Both the position numbers and the translations under genes were made by a program. This document shows positions 2,347 to 56,813 of a DNA stretch of 64,000 nt, one piece after another; the stretch's first letter is position 1, and every line of letters starts with the position of its first letter. Source of the DNA: Gammaproteobacteria bacterium (lineage in GTDB: Bacteria > Pseudomonadota > Gammaproteobacteria > JADZEE01); assembly GCA_020850735.1 (NCBI GenBank), contig JADZEE010000001.1, positions 186,001 to 250,000 of the forward strand. The letters are read 5' to 3'. The notes under the pieces were generated by a model. It made no database searches. It was given only the letters and a program-made list of their open reading frames with translations, and was not told the DNA's origin.

Positions 2347-3858
2347 TCAGTGTCGGGTGGAGGCGACGCGCGCCGGCGCCGGTCGGCGCCAGGAGCCGAG
2401 GGCAATGATCAGGACGTTCAGGCCCAGGCCATACAGCCCGGGATGCAGCCCGGCGATCTTGCCGTGGTGGACGAAACCGAACGGGCCGAAGGCCAGTGCG
2501 AGCGCCGCGACGACGCCGGCGAGCAGGCCGGCCAGCGTGGGTCCGGCGCGCAGTCCGGGCCAGCGCACGCCGAGGAAAAACGCCGGCGCGAGCTGCACCA
2601 GCAGGTCGAACTTGCGGTCGAGCAGATCGATGAGCGAGGCGTGGTCCCTGAGCGCGATCGCGAATCCCACCAGCACCGCGATCAGCGCCCAGGAGCAGAC
2701 CTTGCCCACGCGCGTCAGCTCCGCCTGCGAGGCCCGCGGCCGCAGCAGCGGCCGGTACAGGTCGTTGGTGAGCATCGAGGAAATCGATAACAGCGCCGAG
2801 TCGGCGGTGGACATCATCGCCGCCAGCACGGCGGCGATGAGCAGCACGACGAAGGCGTGGCCGAGCGCCGATGCCTGCTCGATATCGCGCAGCACGATGG
2901 CGAAGATCCGATCGGTGTCCGGACCGCTGAGCCCGGGGAAGTGCGCGATGCCGACGATGCCGACCAGCAGCGCCATCAGCGTCATCGGCAGGGGCAGGAA
3001 GGCCATGACCGCGAGGCTGCGGCGCAGCGCGCGCGCGGAGCCGGCGGCGTAGATGCGCTGGATCGCCTGCGGGTACAGCGAGGCGCCCAGACCGAACATG
3101 AGCACGTAGGACAGCCACGAGCGCAGCTGGTCGCCGCCCGGCGGCACGATCTTCGACGCCTGCTGCGGATCGTTGCTGCCGAGCAGCATGCGGGTCGCGT
3201 CGCCGATGGAGCCGTAGCGCTGATGCACCATGAAATAGATGAAAATGATGCCGGCGAATATGAGCGCGCCCTGGATGGCGTCGGTCCACGCGACGGCCCG
3301 CATCCCGCCTAGGGTTCCGTACACGACCATGATCAGCGCCAGTGCAACGACCCCGTAGTGGTAGGCGGCGGCGGTGTCATCGGGCGCCAGTCCCTCCATC
3401 GCCCGGCCGATCGCCATCAGCTGGGCCAGCAGGTAGTTGCTGAGCGCGATGACCATGATCGCCGAGGCGGTGATCGTCAGCGCGCGCGTGGCGAAACGGT
3501 CGTGGAGGAAATCCGCCGGCGTGATGAAATTGCGTTCCCGTGCGAGCCGGTGCAGTTGCGGCGCCAGCAGCAGGTAGAACGCGATCACGGCAATCATGAA
3601 GTGCAGGCTCATCACCCACACGTAACCCTGGCGGTAGACGTTGCCGGTGAAGGCGAAGAAGGTGTTGCCGCTGTACTGGGTCGCGAACAGCGTCATCAGC
3701 AGCACGACGCTGCCCAGACCCCGGCCACCCAGGTAGAAATCGGCGAGCGAGCGCTCGCGCCTGGCGCGCATGCCGGCGAATCCGACCAGGATCATGGATA
3801 CGAGGTAGGCGCCGATGAACGCCCAGCCGCCGGCGCCGAGCGCAAAGCGGTCAGTCAT
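2347..3858 (-). CDS. Sodium:solute symporter family (SSS) transporter
   Basis: The protein has 503 residues and about 13 hydrophobic helices, the usual size and topology of SSS-family Na+/solute symporters of the inner membrane. The N-terminal DFYLGGRGLG segment (residues 41-50) is the family's characteristic RSL.DFYLGGR loop, and the sequence NTFFAFTGNVYRQGY resembles the pantothenate/acetate branch. The helix near residue 340 carries AAMMSTADSALLSISS, the conserved A.MSTADS.L region associated with Na+ binding. The start overlaps the end of the small membrane gene upstream (3851-3858), so the two are translationally coupled. The substrate cannot be deduced from sequence; pantothenate, a monocarboxylate or an amino acid are possible. 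Confidence 0.88.
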   Translation of the reverse strand: MTDRFALGAGGWAFIGAYLVSMILVGFAGMRARRERSLADFYLGGRGLGSVVLLMTLFATQYSGNTFFAFTGNVYRQGYVWVMSLHFMIAVIAFYLLLAPQLHRLARERNFITPADFLHDRFATRALTITASAIMVIALSNYLLAQLMAIGRAMEGLAPDDTAAAYHYGVVALALIMVVYGTLGGMRAVAWTDAIQGALIFAGIIFIYFMVHQRYGSIGDATRMLLGSNDPQQASKIVPPGGDQLRSWLSYVLMFGLGASLYPQAIQRIYAAGSARALRRSLAVMAFLPLPMTLMALLVGIVGIAHFPGLSGPDTDRIFAIVLRDIEQASALGHAFVVLLIAAVLAAMMSTADSALLSISSMLTNDLYRPLLRPRASQAELTRVGKVCSWALIAVLVGFAIALRDHASLIDLLDRKFDLLVQLAPAFFLGVRWPGLRAGPTLAGLLAGVVAALALAFGPFGFVHHGKIAGLHPGLYGLGLNVLIIALGSWRRPAPARVASTRH

Positions 3859-20485: not shown

Positions 20486-20569
20486 CCGCGCGGGCAGGTC
20501 GGCGCCGAGGCTGCGTTCGCGCCCGTCTGCCTGCTATCCTTGCCGCAGGCAGATGGCCGGTACGCGGGG

Positions 20570-21007
20570 ATGGACATCAAGTTTGCCGAGGGCGCGGCAG
20601 GATACCACGAGGCGCGTGAGCTCAAGGACATGACGCGCTGCGTCGTGGAGAACACGGTGTCGGGCTCGCACGACCGCCAGTTGCTCGACTACCTCGAGCG
20701 GACCGCCTCGGCGCTGCTCGAGCGTCCGGAATTCGAATCACTGCGCCGGGACGAACCGCCGCCGGTCGAGGACCGGCCGCCGTGGCGCCGCCTCGGGGCT
20801 TGGCTGCGGCAGGCATTCGGGCCGAGCCGGCGCGAGCTGGCCATGGCCCGCCAGCGCAGCGAAGCCCTCGCCCGGGCGGAGCGCGCAGAACGATCCGCCT
20901 TCGAGGCACTGGCCGAAACCGCCCGCGTCGGGCGCGAGCGCGACGAGGCGCTGCAACGGCTTGCCGAGCTGCAAGCGCGACTCGAGGGCTCGGCCGGCGC
21001 CGACTGA
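20570..21007 (+). CDS. Hypothetical coiled-coil protein next to the dispersed repeat
   Basis: The protein has 145 residues from the ATG at 20570. The N-terminal half begins MDIKFAEGAAGYHEARELK and is mixed; the segment PPWRRLGAWLRQAFGPSRREL is followed by an Arg/Ala/Glu-rich coiled coil to the end. There is no signal, no cysteine pair and no known motif. It follows the M16 gene at 84 bases, possibly in the same transcript. Its stop codon lies at the start of the dispersed repeat (about 21004 onward). Coding is supported by codon bias and a clean stop, but the family is unknown to me. Confidence 0.6.
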   Translation: MDIKFAEGAAGYHEARELKDMTRCVVENTVSGSHDRQLLDYLERTASALLERPEFESLRRDEPPPVEDRPPWRRLGAWLRQAFGPSRRELAMARQRSEALARAERAERSAFEALAETARVGRERDEALQRLAELQARLEGSAGAD

Positions 21008-21036
21008 GCGCTCGAGAAACCATCAACGCGCCTGCT

Positions 21037-21188
21037 GCGACGGCCCCTGGACGCCCCTGGCGGCGTTGGGGACCCCCGGTATCGTTTCCGCAGGCCCGCT
21101 ACGCGCACGATTTTGTGCACCCCCGCGCCTGGCCAGGAACGCCCGGGAACCGTCTCGCTACGGCGGGGGACTGTTGCACGAGCTCTGA
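21037..21188 (+). repeat. Dispersed ~150-bp repeat, copy 1
   Basis: This segment matches 56223-56375 in the same orientation, with roughly nine of ten bases identical by eye and one 1-base gap. Shared blocks include GACGGCCCCTGGACGCCCCT, TCGTTTCCGCAGGCCCGCT, the run through GCACCCCCGCGCCTGGCC, and GGAACCGTCTCGCTACGGCG. Weaker similarity extends left to the preceding stop codon at 21004-21008 (CTGAG in both copies). Both copies end at GAGCTCTG. No transposase, clear terminal repeats or convincing frame are visible, so it is a small non-autonomous or structural repeat of unknown kind. Confidence 0.85.
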
Positions 21189-32062: not shown

Positions 32063-32149
32063 TGGTGCCGGGAGTGGGAATCGAACCCACACGGTGTCGC
32101 CACCACCGGATTTTGAGTCCGGCGCGTCTACCAGTTCCGCCATCCCGGC
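32063..32149 (-). tRNA. tRNA-Leu (anticodon CAA)
   Basis: On the minus strand the 87-base molecule begins GCCGGGATGGCGGAACTGG, has the long variable arm of a type II tRNA (GGTGGCGACACC region), the T arm GGGTTCGATTCCC, and ends CCGGCACCA with CCA encoded. The acceptor stem GCCGGGA pairs with TCCCGGC. The anticodon loop CTCAAAA (32117-32111) gives CAA, decoding UUG. The Leu identity is supported by the class II arm. Confidence 0.97.
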
Positions 32150-55299: not shown

Positions 55300-55312
<13 letters not shown>

Positions 55313-56193
55313 CGTTCAAGTATCGAGACGCCCCGGCACCGGTGTCAACGCAAGCGGGTACGCTGTACGTGGTTGCCACGCCGATCGGCAATCTCGGCGA
55401 CCTGAGCGCGCGGGCAGCTGCGACACTGGCGGCCGTCGACCTGGTCCTCGTCGAGGACACGCGCGTCACGGGTCGGCTTTTTCAACACCTTGCGATCCGC
55501 ACGCCGATGCTCGCCTGTCACGACCACAACGAGCGCGAGCTCATGCCCGCGATACTGCAGCGATTGCAGGCGGGCGAGTCGGCGGCGCTGGTCAGCGACG
55601 CGGGGACCCCGGTGCTCAATGACCCGGGTTATCTGCTCGTGCAGGCGGCCCACGCAGCCGGCATCCCGGTGCGCGCGGTCGCGGGGCCGTCGGCGATGGC
55701 GGCCGCGCTGTCGGTGGCCGGTATGCCGGCGCACAGTGTCCGTTACGAAGGTTTCCTTCCCGCCCGCGCGGGCGCGCGCCGGGCGATGCTCGAGCGGCTG
55801 GCGACCGAAACCGCCACCGTCGTGCTCTTCGAGGCCCCGCATCGAATCGCCGCTGCGCTCGCCGACATCGCCGCCGTGTTCGGCGCGCCACGCGAGCTGT
55901 GCGTCTGCCGCGAGCTGACCAAGCTGTTCGAGACGGTGCGCCGGGGTCGCGCCGGCGAACTCGCCGCCTGGTTTGCCGCGCACGCGCAGGAACGGCGGGG
56001 TGAGTTCGTACTGGTCGTCGCCGGCGCACCGCGTCATGAAGCGCCCGGCGCCGGCGCGGAAACCGTCCGGGTGCTCGACATCCTGATGCCGCGCCTGCCC
56101 CTGCGCGAAGCCGTGGCCGCGACGGTTGCCATCACCGGGGAGCCCCGCAACGTCGTCTATGCGCTGGCCGTCGGCCGGCAGCGGGGCGCCTGA
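55300..56193 (+). CDS. rsmI: 16S rRNA 2'-O-methyltransferase RsmI
   Basis: The product has 297 residues. GTLYVVATPIGNLGDLSARA, VEDTRVTGRL, SDAGTPVLNDPGYLLV, GPSAMAAALSVAGMP and EGFLPAR are diagnostic. It methylates C1402 of 16S rRNA. Start: GTG at 55300 gives the longest protein but overlaps divergent lpoA; a GTG at 55342 would give a start a few residues before GTLYVVATPIGN, close to the family norm, with no overlap. The stop is followed at once by repeat copy 2 and then rnpB. Confidence 0.94.
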
Positions 56194-56222
56194 GAGCTCC
56201 TGAAATCATCACCGCGGCTGTG

Positions 56223-56375
56223 GCGACGGCCCCTGGACGCCCCTGGCAGCGTGCGGGGACCCCCAAAATCGTTTCCGCAGGCCCGCTGCGCGCGCGATTT
56301 CGTGCACCCCCGCGCCTGGCCGGGAACGCCCGGGAACCGTCTCGCTACGGCGGGCGAGTGTTTCACGAGCTCTGT
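56223..56375 (+). repeat. Dispersed ~150-bp repeat, copy 2
   Basis: Same orientation and same end (GAGCTCTG) as copy 1 at 21037-21188, and, as there, the weaker left flank begins at the stop codon of the preceding gene (rsmI TGA at 56191-56193). Differences from copy 1 are scattered single bases, so divergence has occurred after duplication. It occupies the whole interval between rsmI and the rnpB promoter, its right end at about 56375 lying only a few bases before the rnpB -35. Confidence 0.85.
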
Positions 56376-56416: not shown

Positions 56417-56800
56417 GGAGCCGACCGGGCAGCCGCCCTGCGCCAACGCAGGGAGGAAAGTCCGGGCTCCACAGGGCAGGGCGCCAGGTAACTCCTGGGA
56501 GGCGCGAGCCTACGGAAAGTGCCACAGAAAACAGACCGCCCAAGCTCCTTCGGGAGCCGGCAAGGGTGAAAAGGTGCGGTAAGAGCGCACCGCGTCGCGC
56601 GCAAGCGGGACGGCACGGCAAACCCCGCCTGGAGCAAGACCAAATAGGGAGGCGTGCCGCCCCTGCGGGCGGTCCGGCGTGGCCCGCGCGAGCCTCCGGG
56701 TAGGTCGCTTGAGACGTGCGGTGACGCACGCCCCAGATGAATGGCTGCCACCGCGGTCGCGAGACCGCGGTACAGAACCCGGCTTACAGGTCGGCTCCCG
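56417..56800 (+). ncRNA. rnpB: RNase P RNA, bacterial type A
   Basis: The P1 helix pairs GGAGCCGACC (56417-56426) with GGTCGGCTCC (56789-56798) perfectly. Universally conserved blocks are present: GAGGAAAGTCCGGGCTCC, CAGGGCAGGGCGCCAGGTAA, GGGTGAAAAGGTGCGGTAAG, GAGCAAGACCAAATAGG and GATGAATGGCTGCC, ending ACAGAACCCGGCTTA. This is the catalytic RNA that matures tRNA 5' ends. Order rsmI-rnpB-mraZ is that of Pseudomonas relatives. Confidence 0.97.
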
Positions 56801-56813
56801 CTTCGTTCCGAAC

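What the first reader, a model, noticed from the sequence alone, without database searches (positions are those of the whole stretch)
21037..21188. Dispersed ~150-bp repeat that starts right after a stop codon, two copies in the window
The segments at 21037-21188 and 56223-56375 are about nine-tenths identical and in the same orientation, with the same right end GAGCTCTG. In both cases the similarity reaches left to the TGA of the preceding plus-strand gene and ends before an unrelated gene. The copies lie 35 kb apart in unrelated neighbourhoods, so the repeat is likely present many times in the genome. It has no visible transposase or terminal repeats. It may be a 3'-end transcription or mRNA stabilising element, or a REP-like mobile unit, and could carry a structured RNA.
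Basis: seen in the sequence. Interest (0 to 1): 0.62.

Follow-up and report, generated by a model that had tools for sequence, protein, structure and literature searches.

The report
Hairpin mobile element at stop codons
The repeat is one of about a hundred copies of a roughly 180-base hairpin-shaped jumping DNA element that inserts at the letters TGA, always facing the same way, and so mostly sits harmlessly right after the stop codons of ordinary genes; relatives do the same in several other Gammaproteobacteria.

Summary
The two window copies are the visible parts of a 178-182 bp element that starts at the TGA stop codon (21005-21188; 56191-56375). The genome has about 100 copies (about 220 terminal matches versus 12 for a control pattern). 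It does have terminal inverted repeats (GAGCTYGTGAAAC...GTTTCACRAGCTC); the whole element is one imperfect palindrome, flanked by TGA on both sides. In 74 of 99 copies the left TGA is exactly the stop codon of the upstream gene, and in 10 more it lies within 15 nt. TGA is always on the same strand of the element.

Homologues (74-84% identical) sit at natural stop codons in other Gammaproteobacteria MAGs (trpE, hypA, urtE, secD, fliP). A related element splits a thiolase frame on an Azotobacter chroococcum plasmid, with an exact TGA duplication. A congener genome lacks the insertion between trpE and trpG. The hairpin covaries strongly between lineages but not among copies in one genome, so it was selected in the moving element, not as a local 3' RNA.

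Best reading: an undescribed non-autonomous palindromic element inserting at TGA in one orientation; stop-codon insertions survive because the stop is regenerated. The mobilising enzyme was not found.

The parts
21005..21007 (+). left TGA: stop codon of the upstream gene (ORF 20540-21007) and left target repeat of copy 1
   Evidence: profile alignment (same locus as L035)
21008..21185 (+). element body, copy 1 (imperfect palindrome; ends GAGCGCTCGAGAAAC / GTTGCACGAGCTC)
21186..21188 (+). right TGA repeat of copy 1
56191..56193 (+). left TGA: stop codon of rsmI (ORF 55300-56193) and left target repeat of copy 2
56194..56372 (+). element body, copy 2 (imperfect palindrome; ends GAGCTCCTGAAAT / GTTTCACGAGCTC)
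56373..56375 (+). right repeat of copy 2, decayed from TGA to TGT

Best explanation
It is a non-autonomous palindromic mobile element (MITE-like) of about 178-182 bp. Shown: it has terminal inverted repeats; it inserts at TGA, in this genome preferentially C-TGA-G; it always has TGA on the same strand of the element; and TGA is present at both ends. Because TGA on the sense strand is the usual stop codon of this genome, an insertion there regenerates the stop, leaves both flanking genes intact and survives. Insertions at TGA inside genes are lost or, as in the Azotobacter thiolase, leave a broken gene. Inferred: the hairpin, which covaries between lineages, is what the mobilising enzyme recognises, probably as a folded strand. 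Inferred: copies then drift neutrally and shorten by deletion. The enzyme acts in trans and was not identified.
For: About 100 copies, unrelated flanks. Upstream same-strand gene stop exactly at the left TGA in 74 of 99 copies, within 15 nt in 10 more. Stop trinucleotide at the nominal place in 85 of 98: TGA 82, TAA 3, TAG 0, although TAG is 40 of 517 stops in these loci (chance of none in 84 about 0.001). Upstream proteins reach the C-terminal ends of their NCBIfam models: S1, YidC, DnaJ, SpoT, RsmI, UrtE, FliP, SecD, TrpE. The same placement at urtE|ureD, hypA|hypB, trpE|trpG, nrtB|nrtC, secD|secF and fliP in other lineages. Element-free trpE|trpG junction in a congener, continuous at 84% identity. 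Azotobacter: removing the element and one TGA restores a thiolase N-terminus that aligns without a gap to intact enzymes. Covariation between lineages: 58 double-changed cells against 19.6 shuffled, 0 of 500; none within the genome.
Against: No autonomous relative or linked transposase was found near any copy. Strict orientation relative to TGA is unusual for a TIR element moved by a DDE transposase. At the trpE site the flanks have diverged too far to read the duplication base by base. Copies in this genome are 3-30% from consensus, so recent activity is not shown.
Confidence: 0.87

Rival explanations
1. The mobilising enzyme is an HUH/Y1 single-strand transposase, related to the rare 'class 3' Y1 proteins: the folded strand is cut after CTGA, the left CTGA is host target and the right CTGA belongs to the element, so there is no true duplication. 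This refines the best explanation.
For: Target read on one strand only; whole-element hairpin conserved by covariation; published class 3 Y1 genes are associated with high-copy hairpins with a CnGA foot (PMC6006769), and the element's foot is CTGA.
Against: The three Y1 genes of this genome look like class 2 and at least two have other REP-like palindromes beside them; none lies within about 3.5 kb of a copy; no separate subterminal hairpins; no bias relative to local GC skew (42 of 100 copies, genes 254 of 571, a weak test).
Confidence: 0.4
2. A classical DDE-transposase MITE (for example of an IS5-family member with TNA target duplications): TIRs bound as double-stranded DNA, 3-bp TGA duplication.
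For: Perfect outer TIRs starting GAG; exact 3-bp TGA at both ends in the Azotobacter case; CTGAG resembles a palindromic CTNAG target (IS5-subgroup knowledge recalled, not tested).
Against: None of the 85 full copies aligned has a recognisable TCA at the left end, where a symmetrical target predicts half; outer arms diverge (67% mean identity) while inner arms are conserved (92%), the reverse of a usual TIR-defined MITE; no IS with these TIRs found in the genome or plasmids.
Confidence: 0.35
3. A host 3'-UTR element (mRNA stabiliser, RNase III site or terminator) kept at gene ends by selection.
For: Sits right after stop codons, sense orientation, consensus fold -105.9 kcal/mol.
Against: No site-level covariation, paired and unpaired positions drift equally, truncated relics tolerated; non-stop copies have no fixed orientation to genes but keep the orientation to TGA; no U-run; an insertion inside a gene.
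Confidence: 0.07
4. An integron attC-like or other site-specific recombination site following gene cassettes.
For: Imperfect palindrome directly after stop codons.
Against: No GTTRRRY core, upstream genes are housekeeping genes in conserved operons, copies dispersed singly.
Confidence: 0.02

Closest known systems
REP/REPIN elements and RAYT (TnpA-REP) systems
   Same: High-copy extragenic palindromes; GTAG REPs often supply the TAG stop to flanking ORFs (PMC3733652).
   Different: No GTAG/GGAG/CGTC tag; about 180 bp single hairpin; direct TGA at both ends; two Y1 genes of this genome have other palindromes beside them.
YPAL/RU-2, ERIC, Correia/NEMIS, EFAR bacterial MITEs
   Same: 100-200 bp, TIRs or palindromes, often next to or co-transcribed with genes, target duplications (PMC2229807, PMC3733652).
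   Different: Those for which it is reported have TA termini or duplicate 3-26 bp of variable sequence (PMC2229807); here the target is TGA in one orientation.
Class 3 Y1 (HUH) transposases with CnGA-footed hairpins
   Same: 5' tetranucleotide fits CTGA; high copy number; present in Proteobacteria (PMC6006769).
   Different: No class 3 protein was found here; the published hairpins were not compared base by base.
IS5-family (IS1031-type) MITEs
   Same: TIR beginning GAG and TNA-like 3-bp repeat (from memory).
   Different: Orientation-specific target, arms less conserved than core, no parent IS found.

Membership tests
Bacterial MITE (non-autonomous, TIR-bearing) | short, non-coding, terminal inverted repeats | tested here: met
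Bacterial MITE (non-autonomous, TIR-bearing) | target-site duplication | tested here: met
   TGA at both ends; restored thiolase frame, (cannot be told apart from an element that carries one TGA)
Bacterial MITE (non-autonomous, TIR-bearing) | dispersed copies and an empty site | tested here: met
Bacterial MITE (non-autonomous, TIR-bearing) | shares ends with an autonomous IS | tested here: inconclusive
   none found; the genome is a 170-contig assembly, 95% complete, and IS copies are often lost from such assemblies
REP/REPIN with RAYT | GTAG, GGAG or CGTC tag beside a short hairpin | tested here: not met
   ends are CTGAG
REP/REPIN with RAYT | cognate Y1 gene flanked by the repeat | tested here: not met
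Class 3 Y1 system | hairpin with CnGA foot | tested here: met
   CTGA at left and right; criterion from PMC6006769
Class 3 Y1 system | class 3 Y1 gene near the hairpins | tested here: inconclusive
   no Y1-like ORF in the fetched loci around copies; searched only with the three class 2-like proteins, so remote homologues could be missed
IS5-type MITE | TNA target in either orientation | tested here: not met
   only TGA on the element strand
IS5-type MITE | mobilised by an IS5-family transposase | not testable with these tools
   needs a transposition assay
Rfam structured RNA | matches a curated RNA family | tested here: not met

The most novel reading that the evidence does not exclude
A stop-codon-directed mobile system: an unknown, possibly HUH-type, enzyme acts on the fully folded single strand of the element and joins it after TGA (CTGA) on one strand only, so that the most frequent stop codon of GC-rich genomes becomes a safe harbour. 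The family has spread through several families of Gammaproteobacteria while its hairpin changed by paired substitutions.
Probability: 0.35. Interest if true: 0.78.

Novelty: new variant of a known kind. Interest (0 to 1): 0.6.

Why it matters
Most bacterial MITEs are placed loosely in intergenic space. This family has a strict, strand-specific trinucleotide target that coincides with the commonest stop codon, giving a simple mechanism for a near-neutral safe harbour inside operons (trpE|trpG, secD|secF, hypA|hypB). The contrast of strong hairpin covariation between lineages with neutral drift within a genome is a clean way to tell a mobility requirement from a host RNA function. A cultured host, Azotobacter chroococcum NCIMB 8003, makes it testable.

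Tried and rejected
Rfam at gathering and permissive thresholds: nothing on the element. First GTDB pattern, taken from the own-genome right TIR, found nothing; a core pattern conserved between lineages succeeded. Phage, plasmid, E. coli and IMG/VR searches with the own-genome or related elements gave only the Azotobacter plasmid. Search for a longer element with the same ends: all exact ends were ordinary copies, shortened copies, solo ends or chance. Y1 and DDE genes of the genome were not associated with the element. Replication-strand bias: none seen. RNA-function reading rejected on within-genome covariation. attC reading rejected on core motif and genomic context.

Full report
OBSERVATION. 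The two segments are real and co-oriented. The element is longer than reported: it begins at the stop codon of the upstream gene (TGA 21005-21007; rsmI TGA 56191-56193) and ends with a second TGA (21186-21188; decayed to TGT at 56373-56375). A whole-genome search returned 40 scored matches out of 132 candidates. The end pattern GCTYGTGAAACNNTCNCC has 105 forward and 115 reverse matches, against 6 and 6 for the reversed control. Searches with the two ends separately gave 74 left and 77 right ends, which cluster into 103 places. I fetched 91 stretches around them and found 100 copies by profile search.

ANATOMY. In 85 full-length copies the conserved block is CTGAG-AGCTYGTGAAAC ... GTTTCACRAGCT-CTGAG, 188 columns, with sharp borders. 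The two halves are inverted repeats over the whole length; the consensus folds into one hairpin of 68 pairs, -105.9 kcal/mol. Where the target deviates, for example left GTGAG or right CTGAC, the inner bases stay G (left) and C (right), so the element itself is GAG...CTC and the repeated part is TGA. Left and right middle bases are both G in 65 of 85 copies; the other cells are alignment shifts or point changes, and no copy has TCA, TTA or TAA on both sides. Orientation is unambiguous because full copies align to the consensus far better on one strand (about 300 against 45 score units). Shorter forms of about 50-75 bp and solo left ends, still attached to a stop codon, occur (L033, L096, L104, L111, L118; L034, L058, L062, L119). 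These look like deletion products of the palindrome.

PLACEMENT. I called genes de novo in the fetched loci (614 genes, 87.5% coding). The caller is home-made, so single calls can be wrong. The upstream gene runs in the element's direction and its stop is exactly the left TGA in 74 of 99 copies; in 10 more it ends within 15 nt, mostly through small end deletions. The downstream gene is tandem in 65 and convergent in 31, usually within 50 nt. Stops at the nominal place are TGA 82, TAA 3, TAG 0. Unoccupied CTGAG sites in the same loci are 87 stops, 71 intergenic and 384 coding. Scaled to the genome, stop sites are occupied about five times more often than intergenic ones (the background is taken near copies and is approximate). 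Non-stop copies keep the orientation to TGA but not to the neighbouring genes. The upstream proteins are complete at their C-termini by NCBIfam: S1 556 of 557 to profile 559 of 560, DnaJ 369 of 371 to 372 of 374, SpoT 732 of 733 to 701 of 702, RsmI 294 of 297 to 285 of 287. The element therefore follows natural stops and does not truncate genes.

RELATIVES. Nothing in 55 same-class genomes at first. With the consensus over 369 genomes of the class, two other families carried full-length homologues at 74-83%. A core pattern conserved between them found eight loci in five named MAGs: QQUN (PRO3 110), JAACFL (bin.86), JACOUN (Rhodocyclales), PGZL (HGW-Gammaproteobacteria-1) and JACPFV. At nine of ten distinct loci the element starts at the upstream gene's stop (eight TGA, one TAA): urtE|ureD, hypA|hypB, trpE|trpG, nrtB|nrtC, secD|secF, fliP, an Lrp-type regulator, a hydroxylase-like gene, and one unnamed gene with TAA; the tenth (L166) is intergenic. 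Gene names here are my reading of the translations except where one search gives a model.

EMPTY SITES. G210, in the same genus as G087 (whose copies match JAACFL bin.86), has no match to the element. Its trpE|trpG junction aligns continuously, at 84%, with the element-free join of G087; TrpE ends with the same residues DDLTG. The few bases at the join have diverged, so this shows the insertion but not the exact repeat. The exact repeat is seen in Azotobacter chroococcum NCIMB 8003 plasmid pAcX50e: GGCC-TGA-[GAGGCTGTG...CACAACCTC]-TGA-GCGCC inside a thiolase frame. Removing the element and one TGA restores MSQDPVVIASAARTPLGAFQDELSGLSAPELGGIAVRAA, which aligns without a gap to intact acetyl-CoA acyltransferases. 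That gene is broken further downstream as well. The target there is a CTGAG that is not a stop codon, with the same orientation of TGA. This element shares the outer arms with the Rhodocyclales copy but has a different centre.

STRUCTURE. Between lineages 25 of 58 pairs show changes on both sides with pairing kept; cells paired 93.2% against 84.9% shuffled; 58 double-changed cells against 19.6 (0 of 500 shuffles) and 4-12 when partners are slid. Shared ancestry inflates the shuffle comparison, but the slid control keeps ancestry. Within the genome there is no such signal, and paired positions diverge as fast as unpaired ones. Outer arms are 67% identical between sequences, inner arms 92%. I conclude that the hairpin is maintained in the source elements that move, and is not maintained at individual sites.

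MECHANISM. Shown: insertion at TGA, one orientation, TGA at both ends, survival mostly at stops. Inferred: recognition of the folded element and action in trans. The enzyme is open. An HUH/Y1 enzyme explains the strand-specific target and the hairpin; published class 3 Y1 proteins go with CnGA-footed hairpins (PMC6006769), which CTGA fits, but no such gene was found. A DDE enzyme explains TIRs and a 3-bp repeat but not the fixed orientation. The genome's three Y1 genes are not linked to the element, and two have different palindromes.

VERDICT. A real family, undescribed as far as the held libraries show; a new variant of bacterial palindromic MITE/REP-like elements, distinguished by its one-way TGA target and stop-codon residence.

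Noticed in passing
window 56417-56802: Bacterial RNase P RNA (RF00010) directly downstream of copy 2, so the element sits between rsmI and rnpB.
   Followed up: no
window 32066-32149, minus strand: tRNA gene found by Rfam.
   Followed up: no
L123 (G000:C114) and L124 (G000:C78): Y1 transposase genes flanked by other palindromes (GGGGTCAGACTCG..., GGGGGTCAGGTCTGAC...), apparently separate RAYT/REP systems in the same genome.
   Followed up: partly
L111 and L118, around 3440-3540: Two unrelated loci carry the same internal deletion of the element at a short shared stretch (ACGGC), suggesting slippage across the hairpin or a mobile short form.
   Followed up: partly
L058:4640, L034, L062, L072, L080:3495, L119, L125: Solo left ends of 18-70 bp that still provide the stop codon, followed directly by the next gene; solo right ends are rarer.
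   Followed up: partly
L183 (NZ_CP010420.1, about 20,825-20,995): Azotobacter chroococcum plasmid thiolase pseudogene split by a related element and broken again further downstream.
   Followed up: yes
L099, L040, L068 right ends: Three copies lack the right TGA and end CTCTAGCGC with the same next bases, perhaps a subfamily or a shared deletion.
   Followed up: no
G000:C26:12391-12441 (L052): A 51-bp form with both ends of the element, the shortest seen.
   Followed up: no
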